A stretch of DNA of 52,588 nucleotides from a virus, in IMG/VR virus record IMGVR_UViG_3300043466_000721, positions 1-52,588 of that record; one strand, 5' to 3'. The position numbers and the translations under genes were made by a program. Under the pieces are notes generated by a model. The model did no database searches, was not told the origin of the DNA, and saw nothing but the letters and a program-made list of their open reading frames with translations. Of this stretch, positions 18,327 through 52,583 are shown one piece after another (position 1 is the first letter of the stretch; each line of letters begins with the position of its first letter).

Positions 18327-19235
18327 TTATAAATTAAGTTTTTCTTTTAAATCTAAAATAACCCACTCTGGTCTTTCTTTAATATCTTTTTCCCAGTATC
18401 TTAAAAGAGTTATATTATGGTTTTTACACCAAGTATTTTTGCGTTTATCATTTATTTTATTCTTTCTTTGTATTTCATATTTTGGTATTTCATATTCCGT
18501 CATAGGGTTACAGTGGTAAAAATCACCATCAACTTCAATTAACACATTTTTATTGGGTAAATAAAAATCAAAAAATGTTTTTATTTCAAAAATTAAATAG
18601 TTATATATAAAATCAACATCTTTTTTTAAACCAATATTTTCTAACATATTAATAAAGGTTATTTCAAGTTTTGATGTTTTTACTTTTGAGTTTTTTCTCA
18701 TCCATTCTAATCTAGATTTAGATTGATTAACTCTTAATTCTGGATTATCAATATATCTTTTTTTCTGTGTTTCAGATAATTTTCTTTTACTTTCTTCAGT
18801 TTTTGGGACACCCTTTAATTTTTCAGATATTTTTTTACCTCTCTCTTTATCATTTCTTAACTTTGTTTTAATACCCTCAATTTTTGCAATTGTCTCTGGT
18901 GTTTTATCTTCCCACCATCCTTTATATTTTCCTTCTTTCCAATTTTTCTTTTGTGTTTCAATAGCTTTTTTGTGGGTTTCCGGATTTTTATGGAAATTAT
19001 TTTTACCTTTAACTCTATTATGGTGTGATTGTATAAATCTTGAAAACCCTTTAGTTACTGTGATAAATGGAGGTTTTTCACCACAACCACATTCACATTT
19101 AGGGGTATTATCATTCAATATATGTTTAATATAGACATCTTCTGCCGATATATTGTGTTTTTGAATTGAATGGGATCTGATACTATTTATCGTATTAAAC
19201 TCCTTATTACATAATTCACAAATAAAAATTCCCAT
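18327..19235 (-). CDS. Zinc-finger Vsr-like homing endonuclease, 302 aa
   Basis: Homing-endonuclease-like protein. A C2H2 finger (CELCNKEF, then HSIQKH) is at ~5-26 and a CECGCG zinc motif near 49-54. NUMOD3-like Lys-rich modules (e.g. SEKLKGVPKTEESKRKLSET) lie around 140-175. A Vsr/DUF559-type nuclease core ends the protein: FFDFYLPNKNVLIEVDGDFYH and ITLLRYWEKDI. I chose the ATG at 19235 over one 27 nt further upstream because the finger starts right after it and the 3' arm of an inverted repeat covers it. It lies between the tail tube gene and a second endonuclease, all on the minus strand. Confidence 0.72.
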   Translation of the reverse strand: MGIFICELCNKEFNTINSIRSHSIQKHNISAEDVYIKHILNDNTPKCECGCGEKPPFITVTKGFSRFIQSHHNRVKGKNNFHKNPETHKKAIETQKKNWKEGKYKGWWEDKTPETIAKIEGIKTKLRNDKERGKKISEKLKGVPKTEESKRKLSETQKKRYIDNPELRVNQSKSRLEWMRKNSKVKTSKLEITFINMLENIGLKKDVDFIYNYLIFEIKTFFDFYLPNKNVLIEVDGDFYHCNPMTEYEIPKYEIQRKNKINDKRKNTWCKNHNITLLRYWEKDIKERPEWVILDLKEKLNL

Positions 19236-19257
19236 ACATATAAATATATGGGAATTT
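19226..19257 (-). promoter_or_regulatory. Inverted repeat with internal TATTTAT box over the endonuclease start
   Basis: Perfect 11-bp arms (19226-19236 and 19247-19257, AAATTCCCATA/TATGGGAATTT) flank a 10-nt loop. The loop contains the box at 19240-19246. The ATG (19233-19235) is in the 3' arm on the mRNA. The architecture is the same as at 18259-18298, although the arm sequences differ. Confidence 0.65.
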
Positions 19258-19295
19258 AACAAAGTTAAGTTTGGGTAGATGTTTTTTAGTAAAAA

Positions 19296-19784
19296 CTAAT
19301 AAACTAAGATACAACGATCCATAACAATCGTGGAAGATATTGTTGAAACCTCATCTCCACCATATTTTAAAGATCCCCCATCGTATCCGGTAAGCCACGC
19401 ACCTTCAAGAATCCATTTTTCAACAACAACTCCTGTTGGATCTAACATTTCAAGATCAACATTTTTCTTATAACCAGCGGCATAACCCATACGACCAGTT
19501 ACAGATTCAGCACAAGTTCTAATCCATTCCATAATAGCTTGTGTTGCAGACGGTCCGATTGGATCTCTAAATACAACAGGAAGTGATTCCCAATTAAATT
19601 TACCAGCGACATAAACCTCAGTATTTAAGAATGGGATTGGAACTGAATTTATTTTCAATTTTGGTCGTGATGTGCTTTCAACATACCATTCATTTATCCC
19701 CAAAGAAGAAGGGAATCTCAAGATCCACCTATTATTACGCTTAGGTTCGTAAGGGATAGGCATTTTCATTAATAAATCAGCCAT
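19296..19784 (-). CDS. 19: Tail tube protein (gp19-like)
   Basis: A 162-residue protein with the gp19-type layout: RWILRFPSSLGINEWYVEST near the N-terminus, an extended hairpin region (KINSVPIPFLNTEVYVAGKF), then the WE-x-LPVVFRDPIGPS core and the closing LEGAWLTGYDGGSLKYGGDEV. The length matches T4 gp19 (163 residues). It forms the inner tube through which DNA passes. It lies between the gp26-like/tape-measure block and the sheath gene but is separated from both by endonuclease insertions and the HAD gene. Its probable promoter box is 59 nt upstream, overlapping the leader of the divergent endonuclease gene. Confidence 0.85.
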   Translation of the reverse strand: MADLLMKMPIPYEPKRNNRWILRFPSSLGINEWYVESTSRPKLKINSVPIPFLNTEVYVAGKFNWESLPVVFRDPIGPSATQAIMEWIRTCAESVTGRMGYAAGYKKNVDLEMLDPTGVVVEKWILEGAWLTGYDGGSLKYGGDEVSTISSTIVMDRCILVY

Positions 19785-19868: not shown

Positions 19869-21485
19869 ATGGATTTACTTAAATTTTTTATAGAAAATAA
19901 TAATAGTGGTGCAAAAACTAAAGAATCTTTTTTAAAAAAAAATTATCCAGAGTTATATTTTGAAATAATTAACTACAATAACAACGATTTAATTGATTTA
20001 CCTTTTAAACAAAAAATATGGCACTACATCAATAAAATCCAAAATATACCAAAATGTCAGAATTGTGGTAATAATTTGAAATTTAAAAAATCATTAACTG
20101 AAGGTTATGGTTTATATTGTTCCGTTTTATGTGCCAACAAATGTGGAATAAGAAAAACAAAAATCAAAGAAACAAATATTGTTAAATACGGTGGAAACGC
20201 ACCAATTTGTTCTGATGATGTTAAAAATAAAATAAAAGAAAGTTTTATTAGATCATTTGGTGTTGATAATGTTTTTAAAGATAAAGAATATATAAAATCA
20301 AAAACAATAGAAAAACACAATGTTGATCATATATCAAAACTTGATTCAACCAAAGAAAAAATAAAAAACACAAACCAAACTAAATACGGTGTTTCAACTC
20401 CTTTAGTTTTACCAGAAATTAGACAAGTTGGGTTTGATAAAAAAACTGAATGGTTTTATTCTAAATATGAAAATTTAAATGTTATTGGTTATACCGGAAA
20501 AACAATTGAAATAAAATGTGATAAATGTAATCAACCTTATTTGATTGAGAGGTCTTTGCTGTCTTATAGATTTGAAAATGACATAAACCCTTGTATTTTG
20601 TGTAATCCAATAAATGATTTAAAATCATTTAAAGAAAAACAAATCTGTGAATTTTTAGATGAACATAATATTAAATATATTGAAAATGACCGCAATATTC
20701 TTAAAGGTCAAGAATTAGATATTTTTATACCAGAACATAATATTGCCATTGAATTTGACGGTTTGTTTTGGCATTCAGATAAATTTAAAGACAAACAATA
20801 TCATAGTTTAAAAACAAATGAATGTAAAAAATTAGGTATTAGAGTGGTTCATATTTTTGAAGATGAATGGGATAATAAAAAAGAAATTGTAAAAAGTAGA
20901 ATTAAAACATTATTAGGTCTTACTAGTGTTCGTGTTTTTGCTAGAAATTGTGAAGTAAAATATGTCGACACACAAACAAAAACAAAATTCTTGGAAGAAA
21001 ACCATATCCAGGGCTCAGTTGGTAGTAAATTTAATTTAGGTGTATATTACAATTCAAATTTAATATCTATAATGACATTTGGTAAAAAAAGATTAAATCT
21101 TGGATATAAAAAAACAGAAAACAATGAATATGAATTACTTCGTTTTTGTAATAAACTAAACCACATTGTTGTTGGGGGTGCGTCTAAGCTACTTAAAAGG
21201 TTTATCGTTGATCAATCACCAAAAGAAATTATAAGTTATGCTGATAAGAGGTGGAGTAATGGTAATTTATATGAGAAGTTGAACTTTTCTTTTGTAAAAG
21301 AAACAACACCGAATTATTATTATGTCGTTAATAAAAAAAGAGAATCAAGATTCAAATACAGAAAAGATGTTTTGGTTGATTTGGGATACGATTCAAATAA
21401 AAGTGAATTTGAGATAATGGAAGAAAGAGGTATTCCAAAAATTTATGATTGTGGAAATCTATTATACAAAAAATCCCTAAAGTAA
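19869..21485 (+). CDS. Vsr-fold homing endonuclease, 538 aa (copy 2, inverted)
   Basis: Paralogue of the 527-residue protein, sharing the same order of parts: Cys4 module (CQNCG, then YCSVLC), KYG/FGVDN repeats at ~100-180, a second Cys4 module (CDKCN, then CILC), the nuclease core ELDIFIPEHNIAIEFDGLFW with VHIFEDEW, and a C-terminal ENHIQGSVGSKF region. It is the only plus-strand gene in the 608-25827 block and interrupts the minus-strand tail operon, which is typical of a mobile insertion. A hairpin terminator overlaps its stop codon. The target site cannot be deduced, although the neighbouring tail genes are the natural candidates. Confidence 0.75.
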   Translation: MDLLKFFIENNNSGAKTKESFLKKNYPELYFEIINYNNNDLIDLPFKQKIWHYINKIQNIPKCQNCGNNLKFKKSLTEGYGLYCSVLCANKCGIRKTKIKETNIVKYGGNAPICSDDVKNKIKESFIRSFGVDNVFKDKEYIKSKTIEKHNVDHISKLDSTKEKIKNTNQTKYGVSTPLVLPEIRQVGFDKKTEWFYSKYENLNVIGYTGKTIEIKCDKCNQPYLIERSLLSYRFENDINPCILCNPINDLKSFKEKQICEFLDEHNIKYIENDRNILKGQELDIFIPEHNIAIEFDGLFWHSDKFKDKQYHSLKTNECKKLGIRVVHIFEDEWDNKKEIVKSRIKTLLGLTSVRVFARNCEVKYVDTQTKTKFLEENHIQGSVGSKFNLGVYYNSNLISIMTFGKKRLNLGYKKTENNEYELLRFCNKLNHIVVGGASKLLKRFIVDQSPKEIISYADKRWSNGNLYEKLNFSFVKETTPNYYYVVNKKRESRFKYRKDVLVDLGYDSNKSEFEIMEERGIPKIYDCGNLLYKKSLK

Positions 21486-27720: not shown

Positions 27721-30585
27721 TTGGAATTACAAAAACAACTAATAGAACATAAAGCACTTGATTTATTGGACTCATATAGTGGGGCTAATAATTATATTCT
27801 TTATATGAAATCCAAAAAGGAAACTAACAAAAAGTTTTATCCAACAAGAACCCAAGCTGATTACATTGTAGAATATTTTGACACAAAACCAAAGGTTGCT
27901 CGTAAATGGGTTGAACTGGATCCATACTTTGCTAAAAAGTTTGCACAAGAGAGATATTTGTTTGAAACACCAGAAAAAGTCTATATTGAAAAACTACTTG
28001 TTGAAAAAGATAAGTCATATCACATATGGGGTAAGTTTTTTGAAAAAGATAATCTTTCTGAATTTTGGGTTCCTAAATCTTCTTTAATTAAATCACAAAC
28101 TGTTGATGAGGTTAATATTGATTATTCTAAATATGAACATAGACCACCACTATCACACCAGAAGGAAGCTATTGAAAAACTTGTTGGTTCCAGAAGGTTT
28201 ATTTTAGCAGATGATATGGGGCTCGGGAAGGCGGAATTCGTTGAAAACAAGGTATTTACACCAAATGGTAGAAAAAAAATTGGAGATTTAAAAGTTGGTG
28301 ATGAAGTAATTGGTAGTGATGGTAAAAAATATTTAGTTAGAGGTGTTTACCCACAAGGTGTAAAAGAAACATATAAAATTACATTTAATGACGGATTTTC
28401 AATTTTAGTTGGTGATGAACATTTATGGTCAGTTTCTTCAGCAACTACCGGTAAAAATAGAAATAGTAAACGACGAAAAAAATCATTAGTATTATCAACC
28501 AAACAAATGTTTGAAGGTGGTAAAATTAAAATTAAAGGGGTCGGACACAATAAAGATAAAGAGTATGAAGTTGAAACCCATTATAAATACTCAAATGGTA
28601 ATAATAAGTGGCAAATACCGATTGTTGATCCAATTCAATTTGAACGGAATGGTAGTCTTCCGATAGACCCTTATCTTTTGGGTTTGATTTTGGGGGATGG
28701 ACATATAACTAAATCATCTTGTGTTTTTACAGTACACAGTGACGATTACGATGAATTATTTGACAATTTCAATTTAAATGAAAATAAAAAAATTGATAAT
28801 AAAAGAAAGGGAAATAAATTTATTGGTAGGAATATTTTAAATGAACTCAAACTCAACGAGACCAGATCCCATACTAAATTTATTCCAGAAATATACAAAT
28901 ATTCATCAATTGAAAATAGATTATCAATTTTACAAGGGCTAATGGATACTGACGGACATTGTATGTTTAATAATAGTGGAAAGTTTTTAGGGACTGAATT
29001 TTGCACTGTATCAAAACAACTATGTGATGATGTTGTTGAGATTGTTCAAACATTAGGTGGTATTGCTAGAGTCAAAACTCGTATTCCAACCTATACTTAT
29101 AATGGTGAAAAAAAGAAAGGTAAGTTGGCATATAGAGTTAATATTAAATTACCAAAGGGTATGAACCCATTTAGATTAAAACGAAAAGCCGAAAAGTATG
29201 CTGAACCAACAAAATACCCAACTGGTAGATATATTAAAAATATTGAAAAAGTTGGTTTTGAAAATAGCGTTTGTATTTCTGTTGATTCACCAGATAAATT
29301 ATATGTCACAGAACATTGTATTGTAACCCATAATACAACCTCCACAATTATTGCAGCTCTTGAGACTGGTGCTAAGAAGATTTTAATTGTTTGTCCGGCA
29401 TCACTTAAAATAAATTGGCAACGAGAGATTGAAAACTATTCGGACAGAACTTGTTTTATTGCAGAAGGTAAGAAGTTTTCAACCGAAGCTGATTTTGTGA
29501 TTGTAAATTATGATATTCTAAAAAACTTTCATAATAAGGAAGATAAAGAAAATTCATTATTATTACAATCAAATTTTGAACTTGTAATACTTGATGAAGC
29601 TCATATGGTTTCAAATGTTCAAGCACAAAGAACAAAACTTATAAATGATTTTGTAAAAAATATAAAAAGAGTTTGGTTACTTACTGGAACACCGATGACT
29701 TCAAGACCAATTAATTATTATAACCTTCTTAATATTATTGAGAGTCCAGTGGCACAAAACTGGATGGCTTACGCTATTCGTTATTGTCAAGGATTTCAGT
29801 TTAGAGCTGGAAAAAGAAAAGTCTGGAATGTGACCGGTGCCTCAAATTTAGAGGAATTAAAAGATAGAACATCAAAACAAATTCTTAGGAGATTAAAAGA
29901 AAATGTCCTTGATTTGCCAGATAAAATTATTACACCAGTTTATTTAAGAACCTCATCAAAAGAATATAAAGATTTGATGGGTGAATATTACGAATGGTTG
30001 AAAAATAAAACCGACGAGTCCTCTTCTCTTACCGTTCAGTTCTCAAAACTTATGAAAGTAAGAAAAGTAATTGCAAATGAAAAAGTAAAAGATACAATTG
30101 AATTTGCACAAAATATTGTAGACCAAGGAAAAAAAGTAATCATATTTACAAACTTTACCGACACATTACAACTAATACATAATCACTTTGGTAAAGAGTC
30201 TGTATATCTTGACGGTAGTTGTAATAAAGTTCAAAGACAATACGCCGTTGACCAATTCCAAGAAAACGAAAAAATTAAAGTTTTTGTTGGGAACTTAAAA
30301 GCTGCAGGTGTTGGTCTTACTTTAACGGCCGCTGAGGTTGTAATAATGAACGACTTATCGTTTGTTCCAGCAGAACACGCTCAAGCAGAAGATAGGGCAT
30401 ATCGTTATGGTCAAAAAAATAATGTACTTGTTTATTATCCAATATTTGAAAATACAATTGAGGGTGTTATATATGATATTCTAAATAAAAAGAAAAAAAT
30501 TATTGGAACAGTAATGGGTGATGAGGTTCAGGACACTGGTGATGTTGTGGAAGAAATTTTAACTTTAATAAATAAAAAAATGTAG
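27721..30585 (+). CDS. SNF2-family DNA helicase interrupted by a class 3 intein
   Basis: The 954-residue precursor splices to a ~586-residue SF2/SNF2 ATPase. Motif I (DDMGLGK...TT) is split by the intein at residues 171-538. Downstream motifs are VILDEAHMV (II), LLTGTPM (III), the GLTLTAA block (V) and AEDRAYRYGQ (VI). In T4-like phages such helicases remodel replication and recombination forks (UvsW-type role); the motifs here look closer to SMARCAL1/Rad54-like SNF2 proteins. The first in-frame ATG is at residue 30, but the TTG at 27721 keeps the N-terminal domain and fits the box spacing. It is the first gene of the plus-strand block. Confidence 0.85.
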   Translation: MELQKQLIEHKALDLLDSYSGANNYILYMKSKKETNKKFYPTRTQADYIVEYFDTKPKVARKWVELDPYFAKKFAQERYLFETPEKVYIEKLLVEKDKSYHIWGKFFEKDNLSEFWVPKSSLIKSQTVDEVNIDYSKYEHRPPLSHQKEAIEKLVGSRRFILADDMGLGKAEFVENKVFTPNGRKKIGDLKVGDEVIGSDGKKYLVRGVYPQGVKETYKITFNDGFSILVGDEHLWSVSSATTGKNRNSKRRKKSLVLSTKQMFEGGKIKIKGVGHNKDKEYEVETHYKYSNGNNKWQIPIVDPIQFERNGSLPIDPYLLGLILGDGHITKSSCVFTVHSDDYDELFDNFNLNENKKIDNKRKGNKFIGRNILNELKLNETRSHTKFIPEIYKYSSIENRLSILQGLMDTDGHCMFNNSGKFLGTEFCTVSKQLCDDVVEIVQTLGGIARVKTRIPTYTYNGEKKKGKLAYRVNIKLPKGMNPFRLKRKAEKYAEPTKYPTGRYIKNIEKVGFENSVCISVDSPDKLYVTEHCIVTHNTTSTIIAALETGAKKILIVCPASLKINWQREIENYSDRTCFIAEGKKFSTEADFVIVNYDILKNFHNKEDKENSLLLQSNFELVILDEAHMVSNVQAQRTKLINDFVKNIKRVWLLTGTPMTSRPINYYNLLNIIESPVAQNWMAYAIRYCQGFQFRAGKRKVWNVTGASNLEELKDRTSKQILRRLKENVLDLPDKIITPVYLRTSSKEYKDLMGEYYEWLKNKTDESSSLTVQFSKLMKVRKVIANEKVKDTIEFAQNIVDQGKKVIIFTNFTDTLQLIHNHFGKESVYLDGSCNKVQRQYAVDQFQENEKIKVFVGNLKAAGVGLTLTAAEVVIMNDLSFVPAEHAQAEDRAYRYGQKNNVLVYYPIFENTIEGVIYDILNKKKKIIGTVMGDEVQDTGDVVEEILTLINKKM
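28231..29334 (+). mobile_element. Class 3 intein with LAGLIDADG endonuclease
   Basis: A 368-residue intein inserted between Lys and Thr of the Walker A motif (GLGK / TT). It begins with Ala, not Cys or Ser, and ends THN before Thr+1. The class 3 WCT set is present: Trp in DEHLW (intein residue 66), Cys in VCISVD (348) and Thr in VTHN (366). The central part has the two LAGLIDADG-type motifs LLGLILGDG and LQGLMDTDG, so it probably homes. Class 3 inteins start splicing from the internal Cys. Splicing is predicted, not shown. Confidence 0.88.
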
Positions 30586-30930: not shown

Positions 30931-33030
30931 ATGAAAGTTACTGTAAAACATATTGATTCTGGTCTTCAACCACAAGACAAGAAAATGTATAACGATTTTA
31001 TTAAATTTATAAATTCAAAATACCCAGTAAATAAAGAACTCAAAATTTTATTTCTTGGTGAGAAAAAAGGACATATGTCCACTGGGTCTCAAAATATGAA
31101 CGGAGTTATTAAAGTCTTATCCAAAAATAGATTGAACCGTGATATAATGAGAACTCTAGCACACGAATGGGTTCACGCTCATCAAAGATTAGTTCTTGGT
31201 AGGGAAAGAGGTCCAGACATTGGTGGTCAAAATGAAGATGAGGCAAATGCTTTTGCTGGGCAACTAATTAAAATGTTTGAGAAAGAATATCCAGATTATA
31301 ATGAACTTGTTTTTGAACATTCAAAACCATTAATAAAAAAACTGGATCTTTTAAAAGAAGAAATTCTTAAAACAGAAAAACAAAATTTACACGAAGAATT
31401 TATTACTGAAATGAAAAAAATTGGTATTGATAAATTACCATATTCATATTCAGCAATGAAACAATTTGTTGATCCTAAAACAATGGATATTCATTACAAC
31501 AAACACTATAAAGGTTATGTTAAAAAATTAAACGCCGCGTTATCCGATAAAAAAGGTGAAATGGAACTTGAGGATATTGTAAAATCAATTTCAAAATTTG
31601 ACACAAAAGTAAGAAATAATGCTGGTGGTGCGTTTAACCATGCTTTATTTTGGAAAATGTTGTCACCAAAAAAACAAAATCCAAGCGGATCAATTTTAGA
31701 TAAAATTAAAAAAGAGTTTGGAAACATTAAAAAACTTAAAGATGAGTTTAATCAATCGGCAAAAGATAGTTTTGGGTCTGGGTGGGTTTGGTTAATCCTC
31801 ACAAAGTCAAATAATTTAAAAATTATGACAACACCAAACCAAGATAATCCTCTAATGGATATTATTAAGGGTGGTGGCTTTCCATTACTTGGACTTGATC
31901 TTTGGGAACACGCTTACTATTTAAAATATCAAAACAAAAGAGACGAATATATTAGTAATTTTTGGAACCATATAAATTGGGAATTTGTTAATGATTTATA
32001 TGAAACCAAATCAAAAAAGAAATTAAACGAATCATTAAGAAAAATTATTGTCGAAAATGATACTATGGGTTATGATTTAAAAAAGGCAATGAGTCGTGAA
32101 TTACAAAAAATTAGACTTATACCCTTGGATGCCGAATCCGCATCAGAAGCAATTAAAAACATCATAACTGCCGAAATTTCAAGAGGTAATATTGATTTTA
32201 ATAGAACACTTGAAGGTCTTATGTCGCTTAATTTGAGTAATGTATCAGAAAGATCAAAATATAGATTTAACAATTATTTTCAAAGGTTTGTAAAAAGTAA
32301 GTCAAGGGGTCTTGATTTTGAAGGTATGGTTGCCGGATTTTTAAATGGTGATTTAGCAACAAGTAATGTTTCACCATTTGATGTCTCAACACCAGCTGGT
32401 GATAAAATTTCTTGTAAAATTGTTAGAAGTCAAAAAGAACGAATAACACTTAAAAGTATTAAAGAAACATTGGGTCAATATTTAGCCAACTATTCTGGTT
32501 CTGAAGAAAACAAACAAGAATTGTTAAAGATGAGCCAACAACCAAATTTTCTTAGATTATTGGTAAATCACGAAAATCAAGATTTGAAAAATCAAGCCGA
32601 AGATATATTGGAATTTTTACTTACAGACATCACCGGATTGTTGGTTGGTATTCCAAATGAGACAAAAGTTGGAATTGATTTATATTATTATGATAAAAAT
32701 AAAATTATTGATCTTGTTAAAACACCAGGATTATTAAATGCCGGAAGATCGCCAGAAGCACAAACAATATCATTATCAACAAAAATACTTAGCGGTGACA
32801 AAACTATGTCTGGATTTATTCAGTTTCCAGTTTTAACAATGGATGATTATAAATCGTTTTTAATTGGTGATGAAAAAACAAATGAAGTTTTAAATTTATT
32901 TAATCAACTTGGAAATAAATATGGTGTCCAAAGACTTGGAGACAATTTACCACAAGACATTATTAGAGGTTTATCTAAAAATGAAAGATTCAAGTTAGAT
33001 CTTAAAAAATTGGTAAATCCAATAAGGTAA
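30931..33030 (+). CDS. Zinc peptidase / superoxide dismutase / possible nuclease fusion
   Basis: A 699-residue fusion. Residues 1-~150 are a zincin-like domain with HEWVH (H78-H82) and a downstream EDEANAFA helix (E102/E104) supplying a third ligand. Residues ~165-360 are a full Fe/Mn superoxide dismutase with metal ligands H188 (MDIHYNKHY), H237 (FNHALFW), D323 and H327 (LDLWEHAYY); Q304 in NQDNPLM is the Mn-type active-site Gln. Residues ~362-378 (KLNESLRKIIVEND) look like an internal capsid-targeting leader or prohead-protease site. The remaining ~320 residues contain FEGMVAGF, PFDVSTP and SCKIV, spaced as in PD-(D/E)XK nucleases (tentative). The Mn-SOD call is confident; the N-terminal peptidase and C-terminal functions are inferred. 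Confidence 0.82.
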   Translation: MKVTVKHIDSGLQPQDKKMYNDFIKFINSKYPVNKELKILFLGEKKGHMSTGSQNMNGVIKVLSKNRLNRDIMRTLAHEWVHAHQRLVLGRERGPDIGGQNEDEANAFAGQLIKMFEKEYPDYNELVFEHSKPLIKKLDLLKEEILKTEKQNLHEEFITEMKKIGIDKLPYSYSAMKQFVDPKTMDIHYNKHYKGYVKKLNAALSDKKGEMELEDIVKSISKFDTKVRNNAGGAFNHALFWKMLSPKKQNPSGSILDKIKKEFGNIKKLKDEFNQSAKDSFGSGWVWLILTKSNNLKIMTTPNQDNPLMDIIKGGGFPLLGLDLWEHAYYLKYQNKRDEYISNFWNHINWEFVNDLYETKSKKKLNESLRKIIVENDTMGYDLKKAMSRELQKIRLIPLDAESASEAIKNIITAEISRGNIDFNRTLEGLMSLNLSNVSERSKYRFNNYFQRFVKSKSRGLDFEGMVAGFLNGDLATSNVSPFDVSTPAGDKISCKIVRSQKERITLKSIKETLGQYLANYSGSEENKQELLKMSQQPNFLRLLVNHENQDLKNQAEDILEFLLTDITGLLVGIPNETKVGIDLYYYDKNKIIDLVKTPGLLNAGRSPEAQTISLSTKILSGDKTMSGFIQFPVLTMDDYKSFLIGDEKTNEVLNLFNQLGNKYGVQRLGDNLPQDIIRGLSKNERFKLDLKKLVNPIR

Positions 33031-38271: not shown

Positions 38272-40260
38272 TTACGAATGTGTTATAATCCAGTTATATG
38301 GAGATCCGGTTAAAAAGTTTCTGGCCGCAATTCCATCATAAACACCAGAAGTAGAATTTGGAGCACCATTTGTACCACTAATATTTAAATTAACATTTGA
38401 CCATCCGGTTGGATTGTATGTCGCATTTCCGCTAAAATCAACAAGTATGTGATTAACATCTTCAGAAATCATATTGTTATCTCTTAAAGATATTCTTGGA
38501 TTTCCTGTTGATCCTGTTAATAATGTTGCGCCAGATAATGGTGTAAAATCAATATAATCTAGATTACAACTATGCAAACCAAAGGCGGCTAAAGCTTCAT
38601 TATCATTAGCATTTCTAAAAAAAGTATTAACAATTGGAAATGCAACACTTGTTAAACCAGAATTATTATTTATTTTAATATACCCGGTTGATGCAGAACT
38701 AGACCCACCTAATTTTGTTAATGGCGTTAAATCCAAATTTCCGGTTAGGTTACAATCATATGCCCAATATCTTGAAAAATTCTGTGATGATACTGAATGT
38801 GTTATTCCAGTTAAATTTCTATTCCCATAAACAGAAAAATCACCACCAAGTCCAGATAATGGAGTTAAATCCAGATTTCCGGTTAGGTTACAATCATATG
38901 CCCAATATCTTGAAAAATTCTGTGATGATTGTGTGTGTGTTATACTTGTTAAACCAGTATTATTAGAAACTTGAAATTGTCCCCCCAATCCAGATAATGG
39001 TGTTAAATCCAAATTTCCGGTTAGATTACAACTATATGTTAAATATGTTGAAAAATTCTGCGATGATTGTGTATGTGTTATTCCTGTTAGATTTCTATTA
39101 TTATGAACAGAAAAACTACCACCCAATCCAGATAATGGAGTTAAATCTAAATTTCCGGTTAGATTACACTCGTTTGCCCAATATATTGAAAAATTTTGTG
39201 ATGATTGTGTATGTGTTATACTAGTTAATCCACTATTATTACGAACAGAAAAACTACCACCAAGACCAGATAAGGGTAAATTTAAATTTCCGGTTAGATT
39301 ACAATAGCTAGCTTCATAACCTGTAAAATTCCGTGATGATGGTGTATGTGTTATTCCAGTTAGATTTCTATTATTTTCAACCCTAAAAATACCGCCCAAT
39401 CCAGATAATGGAGTTAAATCTAAATTTCCGGTTAGGTTACAATCATATGTGTAATAATCTGTAAAATTCTGTGATGATGGTGTATGTGTAATACTTGTTA
39501 AACCAGTATTATTATTAACCCTAAAATCACCACCAAGTCCAGATAATGGAGTTAAGTCCAAATTTCCGGTTAGATTACAATTATTTGCTAAATATGTTGA
39601 AAAATTCTGTGATGATGGTGTATGTGTAATACTTGTTAAACCAGTATTATTATTAACCCTAAAATCACCACCAAGTCCAGATAATGGAGTTAAGTCCAAA
39701 TTTCCGATTAGATTACAAGCTTGAACCCGATATCTTGAAAAATTTTGTGATGATGGTGAATGTGTTATTCCTGTTAGATTTGGGTTAAACTCGACCCTAA
39801 AATTACCACCCAATCCGGATAATGGTGTTAAGTCCAAATTTCCGGTTAGATTGCAAACATAAGCATGATATGTTGAAAAATTTTGTGATGATGGTGAATG
39901 TGTTATTCCTGTTAGATTACTATTAAAATTAACCATAAAAGCACCACCCAATTCAGATAATGGAGTTAAGTTCAAATGACCATATAAATTATCATTACTC
40001 AAATTAAAACTACTTATATTCCTAAAACTATTACCTCTCATTTGAATGGTTCTAATTTGTGTGTCAGTAGAAAAACCACCATAGGTTAATGAATTATTAG
40101 CAATTTGTGTTGTTCCGGAACCATTATCTAATCTCCAAGAGACTCTTCTTGAACCACTACTAAACGCAACTGCTGGATTAAAAGAAGTTGTTGATCCACT
40201 TTTTTGAAATGTTAAGACTTGATTTATATTATTTCTTGATGTAAACTGTTGTCTGCTCAT
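38272..40260 (-). CDS. 46-residue-repeat (LRR-like) adhesin, 662 aa
   Basis: A surface protein built of about nine tandem 46-residue units at residues ~91-505, followed by a diverged LRR-like cap. Each unit reads NLTGNLDLTPLSGLGG, then a FxVxNN-x-x-LT-x-ITH segment, then S-SQNFSxY and four variable residues before Cys. The NL-x-G-x-L-x-L pattern suggests a leucine-rich-repeat-like solenoid. Differences between units cluster at the four positions before Cys and at the F-x-V-x segment, as expected for a binding face. It is translated just after the 272-residue fibre protein (15-nt gap). It is probably a receptor-binding or adhesin subunit; no signal peptide is seen. Confidence 0.65.
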   Translation of the reverse strand: MSRQQFTSRNNINQVLTFQKSGSTTSFNPAVAFSSGSRRVSWRLDNGSGTTQIANNSLTYGGFSTDTQIRTIQMRGNSFRNISSFNLSNDNLYGHLNLTPLSELGGAFMVNFNSNLTGITHSPSSQNFSTYHAYVCNLTGNLDLTPLSGLGGNFRVEFNPNLTGITHSPSSQNFSRYRVQACNLIGNLDLTPLSGLGGDFRVNNNTGLTSITHTPSSQNFSTYLANNCNLTGNLDLTPLSGLGGDFRVNNNTGLTSITHTPSSQNFTDYYTYDCNLTGNLDLTPLSGLGGIFRVENNRNLTGITHTPSSRNFTGYEASYCNLTGNLNLPLSGLGGSFSVRNNSGLTSITHTQSSQNFSIYWANECNLTGNLDLTPLSGLGGSFSVHNNRNLTGITHTQSSQNFSTYLTYSCNLTGNLDLTPLSGLGGQFQVSNNTGLTSITHTQSSQNFSRYWAYDCNLTGNLDLTPLSGLGGDFSVYGNRNLTGITHSVSSQNFSRYWAYDCNLTGNLDLTPLTKLGGSSSASTGYIKINNNSGLTSVAFPIVNTFFRNANDNEALAAFGLHSCNLDYIDFTPLSGATLLTGSTGNPRISLRDNNMISEDVNHILVDFSGNATYNPTGWSNVNLNISGTNGAPNSTSGVYDGIAARNFLTGSPYNWIITHS
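38748..39990 (-). repeat. Tandem 138-bp coding repeats (about nine units)
   Basis: In-frame units of 46 codons encode the LRR-like solenoid. Two neighbouring units are nearly identical over most of their length, suggesting recent duplication; one unit has lost a codon (LNLPLSG instead of LDLTPLSG). Confidence 0.85.
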
Positions 40261-40275
40261 ACCTAAATTTAATTA

Positions 40276-41094
40276 CTAACTGTAGTCATTCCCAACTGTC
40301 CAATACATTGTAGAACCATTATATGTAAATGTTAATATATCTGTAATACTTGGGTTGGATGATAATACTACAGAACCAACACCTCCGTTTGCAACTCTAT
40401 GTGTTCCACTAGCACCATTAACATTACCTAAACTTAATGTTCTTCCACCAACAGCATCTTGTGTGACAATTAAGGTTCCATATTCACCATTCCTAACACC
40501 CGTTAATGTTAATGTTGTGTTTGCTGTCAATGTTACTTGATAATTTGTGCTAACACCAGAAACATTCCAGTTGAATGATGTTCCGGTTGAACCAATGTTG
40601 GTATATGAACTAATTGGTGTTCCAGTAACCGATATTGTGAAGTTTCCATTAGTTCCACTTATTGCAATATTATTACCAGGAGTTAAACCACTAACTGGTA
40701 AATTTTGATATGTTGTAGCCGATATTGTTGTTGCGGTTAAACCTTGTAAAGAAGTATTACCAGTTACTGTTAAATTTCCATTAACATTTAATGTATTTGC
40801 ACTTAGTCCACCAGTAAATGATGTAGCGCCACTTACAGTTCCACCAGTAAATGATGTTCCAGTTGATCCTGTGAAACTAACACCAAAGTTAGGATAAGTT
40901 CCAGTGATACTTAAATTGGTTCCCCCAGATATAGATACGGTATTTCCAGAATTTATATATGTTTTTAATTCTGTAAGTAATGTTTGACTTGTAGTTCCAC
41001 TCGTTTGAGTATAATTCACAATTGGTAATATATCTGTTGGTGTATAATCCACACTACTAACAGAAGGTAATTGTGATATTTTTTTATTTGCCAT
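40276..41094 (-). CDS. Tail fibre-like protein, 272 aa
   Basis: A Thr/Ser/Gly-rich, beta-structured fibre protein. It starts MANKKISQLPSVSSVDYTPT, a common fibre N-terminus that includes the KISQLP motif. Residues ~120-160 hold a TISATTYQNLPVSGL block shared with the beta-helix fibre at 48045-49595. The C-terminal ~90 residues look like a beta-sandwich tip (LTLTGVRNGEYGTLIVTQD, FTYNGSTMYWTV). It is first of a two-gene unit with the repeat adhesin and has a TATTTAT box 14 nt upstream. Confidence 0.65.
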   Translation of the reverse strand: MANKKISQLPSVSSVDYTPTDILPIVNYTQTSGTTSQTLLTELKTYINSGNTVSISGGTNLSITGTYPNFGVSFTGSTGTSFTGGTVSGATSFTGGLSANTLNVNGNLTVTGNTSLQGLTATTISATTYQNLPVSGLTPGNNIAISGTNGNFTISVTGTPISSYTNIGSTGTSFNWNVSGVSTNYQVTLTANTTLTLTGVRNGEYGTLIVTQDAVGGRTLSLGNVNGASGTHRVANGGVGSVVLSSNPSITDILTFTYNGSTMYWTVGNDYS

Positions 41095-41127: not shown

Positions 41128-42252
41128 TTAAATTAATTCTGTTGCAAAACAAATTTCTCCGTTTTCTCTAATTAATCTTTCCATATCATTGAAGGAAATA
41201 TAAGCTGAGCCATTTATACCCCAACTTCTACCCCAACTATTTTTCATTCTAAATATTCTTTTTCTTGTGTCAACACCATTAATTACATAAGCATGTCCAC
41301 CAACTAAAGGACCACCAATTCTTATATTTCCATTTCTATCTGGAAAGAACATATTTCTATACCAATTTGTCCCAACTACTACCGGTCCAATATTTAAAAC
41401 AGAGTTAATTAATGTTTGAAGTGTATAACCCCAATAATAATTTCTTACTTTACCTACTTGTTGTAGATATTTTACACCACCCCTTACCGAAGTTCCATTA
41501 TAGTTTTCACCTGGCCATTCATCAAGTTTTTGAGCGTTTTCATAAATTATTTTAGGTTGAATAATTGGTGCAATACCTGGTTGTCCAATTGGTCCATCTT
41601 CCAACCAATGAGCCCAAGAAAAACCAACACAATGTGGTGTATTTCCTTGATTTCCCCACCATCCATTATCATCCCAATATCTTGATGTTATTGTCACTCT
41701 TGATCTTGATGAGGTTAAAAGGTGGTTTTCAATTAAATAATTATTATCCCGTTCGTCTGGTTTATGTGTTCTACCAAGTGGAAATTCTGTTTCAACAACT
41801 TTTGTCGTCGCTGTTACTGGAATAACAGGTGTTGAAATGCAACAAGGAAATTCTGAAACATAACAACTTTCATATGGTAAATCATCAGCTATAAAACTTT
41901 CTTGAACATTAATATATAGTTTTTCTCTAATTGGTAAAATTAAAACACCCTCGTTCTCGGTTCTAAATAAAAACTGACCTTCAAATCTCCCAACCTTATT
42001 TGTGTCTTTTGATTGGAATTGGTAATAAACATAATACTCAACTGGAGCATTTGGATCCGTAAATTCTTTTTTTGTGAAACCAGCCGGCCTTGTCACTATT
42101 TTTGGAATTCCGGTTTCAACATCCGTCATTGAAAAGAATATTGCCGATTCCTCAATGAAATTCATAAAACTATTGTAGTCGCTTCTACCGTCTTTTACCA
42201 CTTGAATTTTTAACAATGGTAATGTTGCGTTCTTTTTAATATAAAATTCCAT
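41128..42252 (-). CDS. Fibre/baseplate protein with papain-like (C1A) protease domain
   Basis: A 374-residue two-domain protein. Residues 1-~130 resemble the N-terminal beta domain of upper baseplate or fibre proteins (FYIKKNATLPLLKIQVVKDG, FFSMTDVETG). Residues ~185-374 are a papain-fold cysteine peptidase with a complete catalytic set: Q202 (NQGNTPHC), C208 (HCVGFSWAHW), H320 (GGHAYVINGV) and N338 (KNSWGRSWG). No signal or propeptide is apparent. It sits between fibre genes, so it is probably virion-attached and may cleave host surface proteins or process fibres. The fold is certain from motifs; the virion role is inferred. Confidence 0.85.
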   Translation of the reverse strand: MEFYIKKNATLPLLKIQVVKDGRSDYNSFMNFIEESAIFFSMTDVETGIPKIVTRPAGFTKKEFTDPNAPVEYYVYYQFQSKDTNKVGRFEGQFLFRTENEGVLILPIREKLYINVQESFIADDLPYESCYVSEFPCCISTPVIPVTATTKVVETEFPLGRTHKPDERDNNYLIENHLLTSSRSRVTITSRYWDDNGWWGNQGNTPHCVGFSWAHWLEDGPIGQPGIAPIIQPKIIYENAQKLDEWPGENYNGTSVRGGVKYLQQVGKVRNYYWGYTLQTLINSVLNIGPVVVGTNWYRNMFFPDRNGNIRIGGPLVGGHAYVINGVDTRKRIFRMKNSWGRSWGINGSAYISFNDMERLIRENGEICFATELI

Positions 42253-42282: not shown

Positions 42283-43380
42283 CTATAATATAATTTCTTC
42301 TTTACATTTTTTTAATGCACATTCTATTACTTGGTGCATATCATAGTATTTATATTCAGCCAATCTACCACCAAAAATTATATTTTCTTCTTTGTCGGCT
42401 AATGTTTTATACTGACTATATTTGAAATTATTTTCTTGATCATTGACAGGATAATAAGGTTCTGTTTTTTTTGCTGAATAGTCTGTTGGGTATTCCCAAC
42501 TAACCCAACTCACATTTGATTCGGTTTTTTCAAAATGTTTATGTTCTATAATTCTCGTAAATGAAACTTCGGAATCCGTGAAGTTCATCATAGCACACCC
42601 TTGATAATTCTCAGTTTCAAATTTCTTGTGATTAAATTCTGTTGTTTTATATTCCAATTCTCCAAATTTATAGTTATAGAAAGCATCTATTGGACCTGTG
42701 TATATTATTTTTTTTGTAACTGAATTCCAATATTCTTTATCCGATAAGTAATCCACATTTAATTTTACCTCAATTCCATCTAATAATTTTTCAAATATTT
42801 GGGTATAACCACCTATTGGTATTCCTTGATACTTGTCATTAAAATAATTATTATCGTATGTAAATCTAACTGGTAGTCTTTTTATTATTTCTTTTGGTAA
42901 TAATCTAGGATCTTTTTTCCATTGTTTAGTTGTATAACCTTTTATTAGTTTTTCATAAACATCTCTACCAACCAACTTTATGGCTTGTTCTTCCAAGTTT
43001 TTTGGTTCTATAATTTCACTACCTTGTTCTTCTATTATTTTTTTTGCTTCACTTGGTTGTGTAATATTCCATAATTTTGAGAATGTCCACATATTAAAAG
43101 GTAATGAGTAAATTTCATTTTTATAATTTGCAACAGCTCTTAGTATGAAATCATTGAAGGAAACGAATTGATTTATCCATTCCCAAACTTCATCATTAGA
43201 GGTGTGAAAAATGTGGGGACCATAATCGTGAACATTAATACCATCTCTGTTAGATGTATAGCAATTTCCACCAATATGGTTGCGTTTTTCTAATACTAAA
43301 CAATTATATCCTTTTTTTGTAAGTTCGTGAGCACAAATAGAACCGAAAAATCCAGAACCAACAATTATATAATCATACAT
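42283..43380 (-). CDS. glf: UDP-galactopyranose mutase
   Basis: A 365-residue FAD enzyme converting UDP-galactopyranose to UDP-galactofuranose. Visible features are the N-terminal Rossmann motif VGSGFFGSICAHEL, the conserved EKRNHIGGNCYT, the YGPHIFHT motif that lines the active site, LPFNMWTF, the GYTTKQW block and the C-terminal GRLAEYKYYDMHQVI. The length is typical of bacterial Glf. It is the last gene of a four-gene minus-strand glycan cassette, starting 3 nt after the FkbM gene ends. It supplies galactofuranose donors for the neighbouring transferases or alters host glycans. Confidence 0.95.
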   Translation of the reverse strand: MYDYIIVGSGFFGSICAHELTKKGYNCLVLEKRNHIGGNCYTSNRDGINVHDYGPHIFHTSNDEVWEWINQFVSFNDFILRAVANYKNEIYSLPFNMWTFSKLWNITQPSEAKKIIEEQGSEIIEPKNLEEQAIKLVGRDVYEKLIKGYTTKQWKKDPRLLPKEIIKRLPVRFTYDNNYFNDKYQGIPIGGYTQIFEKLLDGIEVKLNVDYLSDKEYWNSVTKKIIYTGPIDAFYNYKFGELEYKTTEFNHKKFETENYQGCAMMNFTDSEVSFTRIIEHKHFEKTESNVSWVSWEYPTDYSAKKTEPYYPVNDQENNFKYSQYKTLADKEENIIFGGRLAEYKYYDMHQVIECALKKCKEEIIL

Positions 43381-43383
43381 AAA

Positions 43384-44073
43384 TTATTTTCTTATAAAGT
43401 GATAATCAGCATCAGGACCATTACCACAAAAATATTTATTATTACTTTTATTTGAAACAAGCTCAAAACCTAAAGATTCTATAAAGGGAATTGATTCGTC
43501 TATTTTTTTAGCACCTAAATTATATTCAACATGTTGTAATTCCACAATCATATGTTTAACATTTTTGAGTGTTTCTTTCATTCCTTTTAAAATATCAATT
43601 TCGGCACCTTGAACATCAATTTTCACAAAGTCAGGTAATCTGAATTTTTGATTAAATACAATAGTGTCTATTTTTTTTGTCAGTCTTATTTCATAAGATT
43701 TTTCATCATATATGTTTTTAGCCGCGGGAGAAAAAATTTCATTTTCTTTATAATAAGAATTACCAGCCAAATAAAGTGGGTGATTATAAAATATTAATTC
43801 TTTATCGTCCGTATCGCTAAAAACATTCAAAGAAAATGTAGAACCATATTCCAAATAAAATTCCTCAACTTGTAAGACGGCTTCAAAATTATAATATATT
43901 GAGTTAGACCATATTTTCTTGGCTTCTTTAGTCCAATGAAGAACCGCAGAACCTATGTCGTAAATAACTTTAGGATAATAATCAATTGTTTTTAGATATT
44001 CAATATGTTGAGCTGGAATACTCCAATCATTATGTAATCTCCAATAGTAATCTGTATAATCTCTATTACCCAT
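43384..44073 (-). CDS. FkbM-family SAM methyltransferase
   Basis: A 229-residue methyltransferase with a SAM-binding start (VIYDIGSAVLHW) and the FkbM signature KIDVQGAEIDILKGM, then HMIVELQHVEYNLG. FkbM enzymes O-methylate sugars or related hydroxyls. It overlaps the upstream GT4 gene by 8 nt and is followed by the mutase gene after 3 nt, so the cassette is translationally coupled. The substrate is unknown. Confidence 0.8.
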   Translation of the reverse strand: MGNRDYTDYYWRLHNDWSIPAQHIEYLKTIDYYPKVIYDIGSAVLHWTKEAKKIWSNSIYYNFEAVLQVEEFYLEYGSTFSLNVFSDTDDKELIFYNHPLYLAGNSYYKENEIFSPAAKNIYDEKSYEIRLTKKIDTIVFNQKFRLPDFVKIDVQGAEIDILKGMKETLKNVKHMIVELQHVEYNLGAKKIDESIPFIESLGFELVSNKSNNKYFCGNGPDADYHFIRK

Positions 44074-45247
44074 TCAATAAACTATTAATAAAATTTTTCC
44101 ACATATCTCCTACTTTATTTTTGTTGAATTTTTCTAAAATATAATCTTTTCCATTTTCTATTATTTTATTTTTAAATTCTGGATTTTCTTCTAAAGAATT
44201 TACTTTGGATACGATATTATCAGAATATTTAAAAATACCATCAATGTCTTTTGATAAAGGTTCGTTTTGCATCTTATTTGGGTCTGAACCTGGAGGAAAA
44301 TCCAACCAAGCACAATACCCATCAAAATTTTCAGGTAAAGCGCCTAATGGATATGTCACCGGAATACAACCTAATGCAATAGCTTCTGCAACAACACAAG
44401 AAAAAGTGTCTTTATGAACATCTTGATATGGTGTATATAGAGGATAAATAAAATATTCACTTTCGGCCAAATGTGTAAATAATGTTTTTTTATCCACACT
44501 ATTATGTAGTTTAAAAAAAGAATCTGAATGTGCGTGTGTCGCCAATAAATAATCAAAGGCGTGGAATTCACAATCCTTGAAATTTAATTTTCTTACCGCT
44601 TCCACCGCAACATCACCACCTCTTGCCCATGCTGCATGAAAAATAAATTTATGTTTTTTCTTTTTTGGGTTATTTAATAATACTTCATTTATTACATCAT
44701 CCATTATTGGGTTTGGTATTATTGTTGAAATTGTATCTTTACAATTATTTAATAAACTATTAACCACATTTTGGTTCATTTTTTTCTCCCATTCAGATAT
44801 ATTCACAATGCCTAATTTTAAATTATTGGTATTTACAAAATCAATGATTTCACCCACCCCATATATCCATTGCATATGAGACCAATAAATTAAACCTTTT
44901 GAAATTTTGATTGGGATATTTTTATAATCAACAAACCATAAACTACTTACTAATATGTCAAATTCTTTGTTTGGTACATTAGTGAAATGTATATCAGTAT
45001 AACACACGCCTCTTACATTCTTTCCAGGTTCAAAACCCAACCCTAATGATTCTAATTTTTTATCTAAATGAGGTTCTAATCTTTCTGACGCAAACACAAC
45101 TTCATGTCCTTGACTTGCAAGATATTCTGCAATTAAAATAGAACTTGTATCAGTTCCAGATCCTCCACCACCACCATATCTTAATGTTTCACCATTCAAG
45201 TAATTACTTCTTCTACTATTTCCTATGACTATAAATGCTATTCTCAT
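44066..45247 (-). CDS. GT-B glycosyltransferase (family 4-like)
   Basis: A 393-residue GT-B-fold transferase. The N-terminal half has a Gly-rich nucleotide-fold loop (YGGGGGSGTDTSSILIAEYL); the C-terminal half has KHKFIFHAAWARGGDVAVEA and the donor-binding DTFSCVVAEAIALGCIPVTY, where the E in VAEA matches the GT4 E(x7)E region. It overlaps the upstream transferase by 4 nt (ATGA). It probably transfers a nucleotide-sugar unit in the same pathway as the mutase; donor and acceptor are unknown. Confidence 0.78.
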   Translation of the reverse strand: MRIAFIVIGNSRRSNYLNGETLRYGGGGGSGTDTSSILIAEYLASQGHEVVFASERLEPHLDKKLESLGLGFEPGKNVRGVCYTDIHFTNVPNKEFDILVSSLWFVDYKNIPIKISKGLIYWSHMQWIYGVGEIIDFVNTNNLKLGIVNISEWEKKMNQNVVNSLLNNCKDTISTIIPNPIMDDVINEVLLNNPKKKKHKFIFHAAWARGGDVAVEAVRKLNFKDCEFHAFDYLLATHAHSDSFFKLHNSVDKKTLFTHLAESEYFIYPLYTPYQDVHKDTFSCVVAEAIALGCIPVTYPLGALPENFDGYCAWLDFPPGSDPNKMQNEPLSKDIDGIFKYSDNIVSKVNSLEENPEFKNKIIENGKDYILEKFNKNKVGDMWKNFINSLLNG

Positions 45248-46494
45248 ACTATTATTTTTTCATATCTATCACTCCATTGTTTTTCTTCATCGAAGAGATA
45301 CATAATTATTTTATTTGGTCTATCAGCTGATTCAAAAAAAGCTCTAAATTTGTTTATTTCTAGATTAACATATTGAGGGTCGTTTTCTAATGTAAAATCT
45401 CTTCTATATAGTTCAGCCCCACTACTATTTGCAACCGCAAAAGTTAAAAACTTTTTATTTATAAAATTATACTTTTTGAAAAAATTTAAATCCCAATCTA
45501 CCTCAAAATTATACACATTTTTGATAAATTGGTTTTCCCAATCAATAGGATTTGGTGGTTCTTTAACTTTTAGAGTATAGTCTTGGATTATACATTTTTT
45601 AAAGTCAAATCCTCCATAAACTTCATAATCGTGTAAAGTTCTTTTATCACCCAAACAATAAATACCCATATCAATATCACCCTCATCGGTTCCAAAAAGT
45701 TGTCTTGTCTTTTCTCTAGCAAAAACATCTCTTTGTCCACTGGTTTTATCTGTTTTACTTTCCTTACCGTGGTCCTCCCAATGCTTCGGTCTGTAATTTC
45801 TTGTGTATTCATGCCACATAACCATTCTATATGGACTAAAAAAGTCATAACCATTTGTATATGCTCTAGCACTTAGTGTTGTCTCCTCAACATACCCACC
45901 AAAATAAATGTCAGGATCATATGGTACTTCTTCAATAAATTTTCCATATGTAAAATAAAAATGCCCACTAATAGTTCTTGCTCTAATTATTTTGTCTCTT
46001 TCTTTATAATCTTGAATATACCAAGGCATTGACATTAAAAGTTTGTCAGAACTAAACTCATATTGAGACATTAATGTTGGTGTTTTATTCCACTTATCTT
46101 CATCTTCATTCGGATCAAATGGTGTGCAATATGTTGTAATAACAGGTTTTTCGGATATTTCTAAAGCCTGATTAAAATCCTCCAAGACAATTTCATCCCA
46201 ATTTTCAACAAATCTATGATGTGAATCAATTTGTAATGTATATTTTTCTCCACCATATAGTAAATTTGTCACATTTCTAGCCCAACCTAAACCTTGACTT
46301 TCTGAATAGTGATATTTTTTAATCCTAAAATTTGGATTACTATCATATTTAGTAATGTCTTCGGTTTCATCATATTGCCAACAAATCCCAAAAATCAAAT
46401 TTTCTGGGTGTCTAGCTTTTTTTAACATATCCTCAATTGTTGGTATAAGTTGGGGATCTCTATAACTTGCGATTTGAACGAAAATTTTATCCAT
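45244..46494 (-). CDS. GlcNAc-transferase-like glycosyltransferase, 416 aa
   Basis: A 416-residue GT-A-type enzyme of the GlcNAc (Skp1 GnT-like) family. Characteristic elements are FVQIASYRDPQLIPTIEDML, FGICWQYDE, GLGWARNVTNLLYGGEKYTL-QIDSHHRFVENWDE (the DSH metal-binding site), and GHFYFTYGKFIEEVPYDPDIY-FGGYVEE. Members of this family add GlcNAc to proteins, including hydroxyproline in Skp1. It starts the cassette; no exact TATTTAT box precedes it. The last ~100 residues are a separate beta-rich segment. Confidence 0.8.
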   Translation of the reverse strand: MDKIFVQIASYRDPQLIPTIEDMLKKARHPENLIFGICWQYDETEDITKYDSNPNFRIKKYHYSESQGLGWARNVTNLLYGGEKYTLQIDSHHRFVENWDEIVLEDFNQALEISEKPVITTYCTPFDPNEDEDKWNKTPTLMSQYEFSSDKLLMSMPWYIQDYKERDKIIRARTISGHFYFTYGKFIEEVPYDPDIYFGGYVEETTLSARAYTNGYDFFSPYRMVMWHEYTRNYRPKHWEDHGKESKTDKTSGQRDVFAREKTRQLFGTDEGDIDMGIYCLGDKRTLHDYEVYGGFDFKKCIIQDYTLKVKEPPNPIDWENQFIKNVYNFEVDWDLNFFKKYNFINKKFLTFAVANSSGAELYRRDFTLENDPQYVNLEINKFRAFFESADRPNKIIMYLFDEEKQWSDRYEKIIV

Positions 46495-52016: not shown

Positions 52017-52583
52017 TTAACCACATAACCAACAATCCAGACTAGCAGTAATTTCCCAAAATGTTCGGTATATGTTATATGTTATTGGAAAACCATTTCC
52101 ATCTATAATAATTATTTGTCCAGTATAATTTAAAATATTAGATCCGAAACATATGTTATTATTTTTAAATCCTGTTGGTTGTGGTAATGTTATTGGAATT
52201 AAAATATATCCATATGCTGTTCCAGTTGGTAATGTAACATATGAATTTGTTGGGTTATTTGTTGTGACAAATGTAAGTGTTGATACATCACCACTTGTAA
52301 TTGTTGCACCACTAAATTTACCATAATATATACCAGACGGTTCTGGACCCAATGTTGGGGTAGGTGTTGGTGTTTTTGTTGGACAAGACGTTGGTGTAGG
52401 TGTAGGTGTTGGGGTAGGTGTTGGTGTTCTTGTCGGTCTTGGTGTAGGTGTTGGTGTAGGTGTTGGTGTTTTTGTTGGACAAGGATTGGGTGTTGGTGTA
52501 GGAGTTGGGGTAGGTGTTGGTGTTTTTGTTGGTCTTGGTGTTGATGTTGGTGTTGGTGTAGGTGTTGGTCTTGGAACATTCAT
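52017..52583 (-). CDS. Pro-Thr-rich stalk protein with C-terminal domain, 188 aa
   Basis: Residues 1-~80 are almost pure Pro-Thr repeats with a few Arg, Lys and Cys (blocks ending RPTKTPTP or PCPTKTPTP). Residues ~82-188 form a beta domain ([15 protein letters not shown], then [15 protein letters not shown]). The extended stalk would hold the C-terminal domain away from a partner. The start lies 5 nt from the window edge, so a longer N-terminus cannot be fully excluded. Confidence 0.5.
52353..52572 (-). repeat. Pro-Thr coding minisatellite
   Basis: About 220 bp of imperfect GGTGTTGGTGTA-type hexamers with three interspersed GTTGGACAAG/GTCGGTCTT units. Likely prone to slippage and length change. 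Confidence 0.8.

What the first reader, a model, noticed from the sequence alone, without database searches (positions are those of the whole stretch)
38748..39990. Solenoid adhesin whose repeats differ mainly at one face
Nine 46-residue units are almost identical except at the four residues before Cys (e.g. HAYV, RVQA, LANN, YTYD, EASY, WANE) and in the F-x-V segment. Clustering of change in an otherwise fixed LRR-like frame suggests selection for binding diversity, recalling repeat-based receptors. Unequal crossing-over among 138-bp units could reshuffle specificity.
Basis: partly seen in the sequence, partly recalled or inferred. Interest (0 to 1): 0.65.

Follow-up and report, generated by a model that had tools for sequence, protein, structure and literature searches.

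The report
Phage tail-tip adhesin with hypervariable leucine-rich repeats
A large contractile-tailed bacterial virus carries, next to a tail-fibre gene, a protein built like the leucine-rich-repeat immune receptors of animals and plants, in which variation is confined to one face; it is probably the swappable tip with which the virus grips its host.

Summary
The minus-strand gene 38272-40260 (662 aa) carries nine tandem 46-aa units, each made of two 23-aa leucine-rich repeats (LRRs). Variation alternates along two beta-strands per unit (positions 18/20/22 and 41/43/45-46), in 68 units from 13 proteins and again in 35 units from ten others. A predicted structure (pLDDT about 96 over the array) puts these strands in one sheet of a solenoid. 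That this sheet is the concave one is inferred from the LRR register, not measured. Context is the new result: all 17 family members lie directly downstream of a fibre gene ending in one conserved domain ('TIP'). Scanning with TIP found an LRR gene next to it in 31 of 35 loci and non-LRR proteins in the rest. Between sister phages the fibre-LRR locus is an identity trough with unit gains and losses; between otherwise unrelated phages it can be the only shared DNA. No reverse transcriptase was found and LRR genes are identical across samples, so variation looks evolutionary, not programmed. Best reading: a detachable fibre-tip adhesin, arranged like T2/S16 gp37-gp38, on a lymphocyte-receptor-like LRR scaffold. 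Receptor binding is inferred, not shown.

The parts
38272..40260 (-). LRR tip adhesin gene, 662 aa
   Evidence: ORF; AlphaFold2 model pLDDT 82 overall, about 96 in the array
39994..40260 (-). N-terminal domain, residues 1-89, starting MSRQQFTSRNN; proposed docking domain, conserved in the family
   Evidence: Alignments; similar MSRxxFxS starts in other genes that follow TIP. Docking is inferred
38755..39993 (-). Nine tandem units of 46 (once 45) aa, two 23-aa LRRs each
38569..38754 (-). Degenerate tenth unit with insertion (62 aa)
38272..38568 (-). C-terminal cap (CNLDYIDFTPLSG..VNHILVDF..ITHS), conserved in the family
40276..41094 (-). Partner fibre gene, 272 aa; N-terminus MANKKISQLP is shared with fibres of sister phages
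   Evidence: weak match to a PHROG tail assembly protein
40276..40623 (-). TIP domain, conserved C-terminus of the fibre and proposed docking platform for the adhesin
   Evidence: alignment A3; adjacency scan; fold match to phage spike/baseplate structures
41128..42252 (-). Gene upstream of the fibre: KNATLP N-terminal domain plus papain-like peptidase; neighbour, function in the module unknown

Best explanation
The gene encodes the receptor-binding tip of a tail fibre of a large contractile-tailed phage. The fibre gene upstream ends in a constant TIP domain. The N-terminal domain of the LRR protein docks on TIP, and its LRR solenoid presents a sheet of variable residues to a molecule on the host surface. 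Specificity diversifies over evolutionary time by substitution at those sites, by gain and loss of 138-bp units through recombination within the array, and by exchange of the whole TIP-adhesin module between phages. Shown by computation: solenoid prediction, variable face, unit-number variation, adjacency to TIP, module exchange. Inferred: docking, concave orientation, receptor binding, and the receptor's nature (the face is rich in Tyr, Arg, Asn and Gln, which would suit a glycan or a protein loop).
For: Entropy pattern and replicate; LRR solenoid model and LRR fold matches; TIP directly upstream of all 17 LRR genes and LRR genes after TIP in 31 of 35 listed TIP loci, other proteins in 4; TIP and LRR both present only in the same 2 of 80 polymerase-related loci; sheath, tube and baseplate hub genes in the same record; identity trough at fibre-LRR between sister phages and array indel; TIP-LRR as the only shared DNA between L088 and L090; exact tracts between units; face enriched in Tyr, Arg, Gln, Asn and poor in Lys, against a rough background of all reading frames; TIP model resembles phage spike and baseplate structures.
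Against: No experiment and no known receptor or host. Docking on TIP rests on adjacency and a shared N-terminal motif. The N-terminal domain is modelled with low confidence. Face dN/dS exceeds 1 only in some genes. No PHROG match and no Pfam LRR match above cut-off. Fold matches to PDB have low full-length TM-scores; TIP fold matches have E about 0.003-0.005.
Confidence: 0.78

Rival explanations
1. The pattern is relaxed constraint: exposed strand residues of any repeat protein drift while the core is fixed, so there is no selection for binding diversity.
For: In several relatives synonymous sites of the face are also highly diverged and face dN/dS is below 1 or saturated.
Against: Other sites that should point outward are far less variable (1.28 against 2.99 bits; assignment of outward sites is mine). 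Face residues are biased to Tyr, Arg, Asn, Gln and Trp, and poor in Lys and Glu. In recent unit pairs the face amino-acid rate (0.167) exceeds the framework synonymous rate (0.107).
Confidence: 0.1
2. It is a programmed diversity system: a retroelement or silent cassettes rewrite the array within a phage population, as in diversity-generating retroelements or lamprey receptors.
For: Exact long tracts between units and mosaic faces.
Against: No reverse transcriptase in the window or in 14 related records, including contigs of 257 and 296 kb. No second LRR locus in the seven records that carry the gene. LRR genes are identical in contigs of different samples, even where flanks differ. The records may be incomplete.
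Confidence: 0.04
3. The LRR protein is not the host-binding tip but binds something else: mucus or particle surfaces, other virions, or the fibre itself as a chaperone or lock.
For: Small second genes after fibre genes can be assembly chaperones (T4 gp38, PMC12892980). LRR tail proteins have been discussed for mucus adherence (PMC10945359).
Against: A chaperone should not carry a hypervariable sheet or be replaced by unrelated folds after the same TIP. The locus diverges like a receptor-binding locus.
Confidence: 0.12

Closest known systems
T2/PP01/S16-type gp38 tip adhesin on gp37 (T-even long tail fibre)
   Same: Separate gene directly after a fibre gene; constant N-terminus that meets the fibre, hypervariable receptor-binding part; specificity changes in the variable part (PMC12892980)
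   Different: gp38 is a polyglycine-II sandwich with variable loops; here the scaffold is an LRR solenoid with a variable sheet and variable unit number. No sequence homology was found
Variable lymphocyte receptors of lampreys and hagfish
   Same: LRR solenoid with hypervariable strand positions and variable repeat number (PMC3900441 abstract, and general knowledge)
   Different: Those are assembled somatically by a gene-conversion-like process; here the variation is inherited, and no cassettes or editing enzyme were found. Resemblance of design only
BspA-type LRR proteins (Pfam LRR_5, PF13306) and phage LRR_5 proteins
   Same: 23-aa LRRs with Cys/Asn ladder; weak LRR_5 matches in relatives (E 0.0017 in L100, 0.0041 in L106); best viral fold match is named LRR 5
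   Different: All matches are below Pfam's cut-off; the window protein itself has none; alternating Phe-Val-Asn and Tyr-Ala-Cys LRRs
LRR-like tail-module protein of Vibrio phage P. lipares
   Same: LRR motif in a tail-module protein, the most diverse protein among strains that differ in host susceptibility (PMC10945359)
   Different: That LRR call rested on 10% hhpred probability; the passages read mention no repeat array, variable face or docking partner

Membership tests
Leucine-rich-repeat fold | Tandem 20-30-aa repeats with LxLxxN/CxL segments forming a solenoid | tested here: met
   Unit alignment, model, fold matches to LRR receptors and internalin J
Leucine-rich-repeat fold | Match to a curated LRR profile above cut-off | tested here: not met
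   No LRR hit for the window protein; weak LRR_5 hits in relatives below cut-off
Hypervariable-sheet LRR receptors (VLR-like design) | Variable residues in one sheet of the solenoid | tested here: met
Hypervariable-sheet LRR receptors (VLR-like design) | That sheet is the concave one | tested here: inconclusive
   Inferred from the canonical LRR register; no model coordinates were available
Variable lymphocyte receptors | Assembly from silent cassettes within an individual | tested here: not met
   No second LRR locus in the records that carry the gene; identical genes across samples
gp37-gp38-like two-gene fibre tip | Adhesin gene directly after a fibre gene with a constant tip | tested here: met
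gp37-gp38-like two-gene fibre tip | Physical complex of adhesin N-terminus with fibre tip | not testable with these tools
T-even gp38 (homology) | Polyglycine-II sandwich fold | tested here: not met
   Predicted LRR solenoid; no gp38 among listed fold matches
Diversity-generating retroelement target | Reverse transcriptase in the genome | tested here: not met
   PF00078 absent in the window and 14 related records, some of them fragments

The most novel reading that the evidence does not exclude
A family of phage fibre tips that independently reached the design of jawless-vertebrate antigen receptors: an LRR scaffold with a hypervariable sheet and variable unit number, carried on an exchangeable platform (TIP) that also holds non-LRR adhesins.
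Probability: 0.6. Interest if true: 0.8.

Novelty: new variant of a known kind. Interest (0 to 1): 0.68.

Why it matters
Known detachable phage tips vary in loops. This one appears to vary across a repeat sheet and to change length by whole units, which would give phages a combinatorial receptor-binding surface. The TIP domain gives a sequence handle for finding fibre-tip adhesins, including non-LRR ones, in uncultured phages, where they are otherwise missed: the window protein matched no PHROG, PDB sequence or Pfam LRR model. It also makes testable whether viruses and immune systems converged on the same scaffold for recognising variable surfaces.

Tried and rejected
Synechococcus phage DSL-LC03 hit: its translation shows a different repetitive fibre without CNLTG units, a low-complexity match. 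Pfam hits Bile_Hydr_Trans and CRAM_rpt: short, repeat-driven and not coherent with the fold. Diversity-generating retroelement: no reverse transcriptase. Silent cassettes: none found. A single-protein scan of viral contigs found nothing, because the patterns fell on variable segments. A first regular expression for units was wrong and was replaced. Distance decay of unit similarity within the window array is weak, 0.81 to 0.77, so it is not used as evidence. Host: polymerase relatives in Salinibacter and cyanobacterial phages, sheath relatives in Microcystis and Flavobacterium phages among others, and one TIP-LRR contig in a Lewinella MAG that looks chimeric; no firm host.

Full report
OBSERVATION. 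The repeat array is real. A 138-bp tandem repeat of 9.1 copies covers 38719-39977, inside a minus-strand ORF of 662 aa, 38272-40260. Nine units of 46 aa (one of 45) run from 39993 to 38755, followed by a degenerate unit and a cap. Codon by codon, framework positions hold mostly synonymous changes, while positions 18, 20, 22, 23, 25, 26, 41, 43, 45 and 46 hold nonsynonymous ones. Each unit reads as two 23-aa LRRs: x-F-x-V-x-x-N..L-T-x-I and x-Y-x-A-x-x-C-N-L. Phe19/Val21 and Tyr42/Ala44 are the inward residues; 18/20/22 and 41/43/45 are their outward neighbours.

RELATIVES. A single-sequence scan found nothing. The DNA polymerase downstream found 341 related stretches, of which 80 loci were kept. 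Two of them, L009 and L010, hold an LRR gene. Profiles built from these gave further family members: 16 distinct proteins besides the window, from 336 to 1135 aa, with differing unit numbers. Sixty-eight distinct units from 13 proteins give entropy of 2.1-3.5 bits at the six alternating face positions and 0.1-0.4 at Phe19, Tyr42, Asn24 and Leu27. The six-position template ranks first of all offsets, permutation p = 5e-6. A second set of 35 units from ten proteins not used before repeats the pattern. Outward sites off this sheet vary far less, 1.28 against 2.99 bits; which sites point outward was assigned by me from the LRR register.

STRUCTURE. AlphaFold2 with eight family sequences gives pLDDT of about 96 across the array. 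Strands at unit positions 17-22 and 39-45 recur in equivalent places of each 23-aa turn, and strands at 26-31 and 4-8 in another, so the variable strands should stack into one sheet. Fold search returns LRR receptors (best E 1.2e-4) and internalin J (prob 1.00); full-length TM-scores are low, which solenoids of differing curvature would give. Among viral models the best is 'Leucine rich repeat 5' of an uncultured phage.

CONTEXT. The record also encodes tail sheath, tail tube and baseplate hub. Directly upstream of the LRR gene lies a 272-aa fibre. Its C-terminal domain, called TIP here, recurs at the end of otherwise different fibres upstream of every LRR gene (for L102 and L106 through L137 and L150 on the same contigs). 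Scanning with TIP gave 41 loci. In the 35 examined, TIP always ends its protein and a gene follows at once (overlap or gap up to 12 bp, one start uncertain): LRR in 31, and non-LRR proteins in L146, L147, L151 and L158. Some of these rows are identical contigs, so they are not 35 independent events. Most of the following genes, some non-LRR ones included, begin with a similar MSR-x-x-F-x-S motif. In the 80 polymerase loci, TIP and LRR are both present only in L009 and L010. A model of TIP resembles a phage Pa223 capsid spike and a KP1 baseplate-region structure (prob 1.00, E 3e-3 and 5e-3), which suits a virion fibre domain but is only suggestive.

EVOLUTION. Comparing the window with L091, DNA identity runs 99.5% (mutase), 96.0%, 90.0% (fibre), 87.8% (TIP), 80.1% (LRR N-terminus), 75.5% (cap), 88.3% (polymerase), 96.7%. 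L088 and L097 give 98.0, 94.6, 69.3 (fibre), 79.4 (TIP), 86.6 (LRR N-terminus), 73.8 with 576 gapped columns in the array, 95.5, 98.0. Conversely L088 and L090 share, in 10 kb, only the stretch from the end of the fibre to the end of the LRR gene (TIP 88.6%, LRR 87.1%). Inside arrays, exact tracts of 106 (window units 3-4), 103 (L091) and 91 nt (L094) point to recent unit duplication or conversion. Units 3 and 4 of the window differ, apart from one codon, only in the last seven codons. In recent pairs the face changes five times faster in amino acid than the framework (0.167 against 0.032 per site; framework synonymous 0.107). Face dN/dS exceeds 1 in the window, L091 and L099 only, so positive selection is likely but not proven.

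WHAT IT IS NOT. No reverse transcriptase in 15 records, no second LRR locus in the seven records that carry the gene, and identical genes in different samples argue against programmed within-population variation. Several records are fragments, so absence is not proof.

KNOWN RELATIVES. The arrangement works like gp37-gp38 of T2, PP01 and S16, where the N-terminus of gp38 interacts with gp37 and hypervariable loops bind OmpC (PMC12892980), but the fold differs and no homology was found. The variable-sheet LRR design resembles lamprey variable lymphocyte receptors (and general knowledge). An LRR-like, most-variable tail-module protein linked to host susceptibility was reported in Vibrio phages on weak evidence (PMC10945359). 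Literature searches for LRR tail fibres found no description of this design, within an open-access library only.

Noticed in passing
30931-33030 (+): A 699-aa phage protein with a complete Fe/Mn superoxide dismutase domain (Pfam E 4e-39) in a record with tail genes.
   Followed up: no
27721-30585 (+): SNF2-type helicase whose domain (aa 146-783) is split by a LAGLIDADG/homing endonuclease stretch at aa 388-476: probable intein.
   Followed up: no
16683-18266 (-), 18327-19262 (-), 19869-21485 (+): Three homing-endonuclease-like genes crowd around the tail tube gene 19296-19784.
   Followed up: no
41128-42252 (-): Protein with the KNATLP N-terminal domain fused to a papain-like peptidase; in L011 and L019 the same N-terminal domain carries a different C-terminus. 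Possibly another variable virion protein.
   Followed up: partly
42283-46494 (-): Cluster of UDP-galactopyranose mutase, FkbM methyltransferase and glycosyltransferases beside the fibre module, 99.5% identical (mutase) to L091 while the adhesin is 75-80%; perhaps virion glycosylation.
   Followed up: partly
L140 and L155 (contig IMGVR_UViG_3300008267_000143): Two TIP-LRR modules lie a few kb apart on one contig, so a phage may carry two tip adhesins.
   Followed up: no
L007, L011, L013, L014 upstream of the polymerase: In sister phages the same slot holds long fibres of YadA-head-like GG-x-x-NTSSG repeats of varying number and no LRR gene.
   Followed up: partly
52353-52574: Short tandem repeats of 12-96 bp at the edge of the window, probably coding a Pro/Thr-rich linker.
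   Followed up: no
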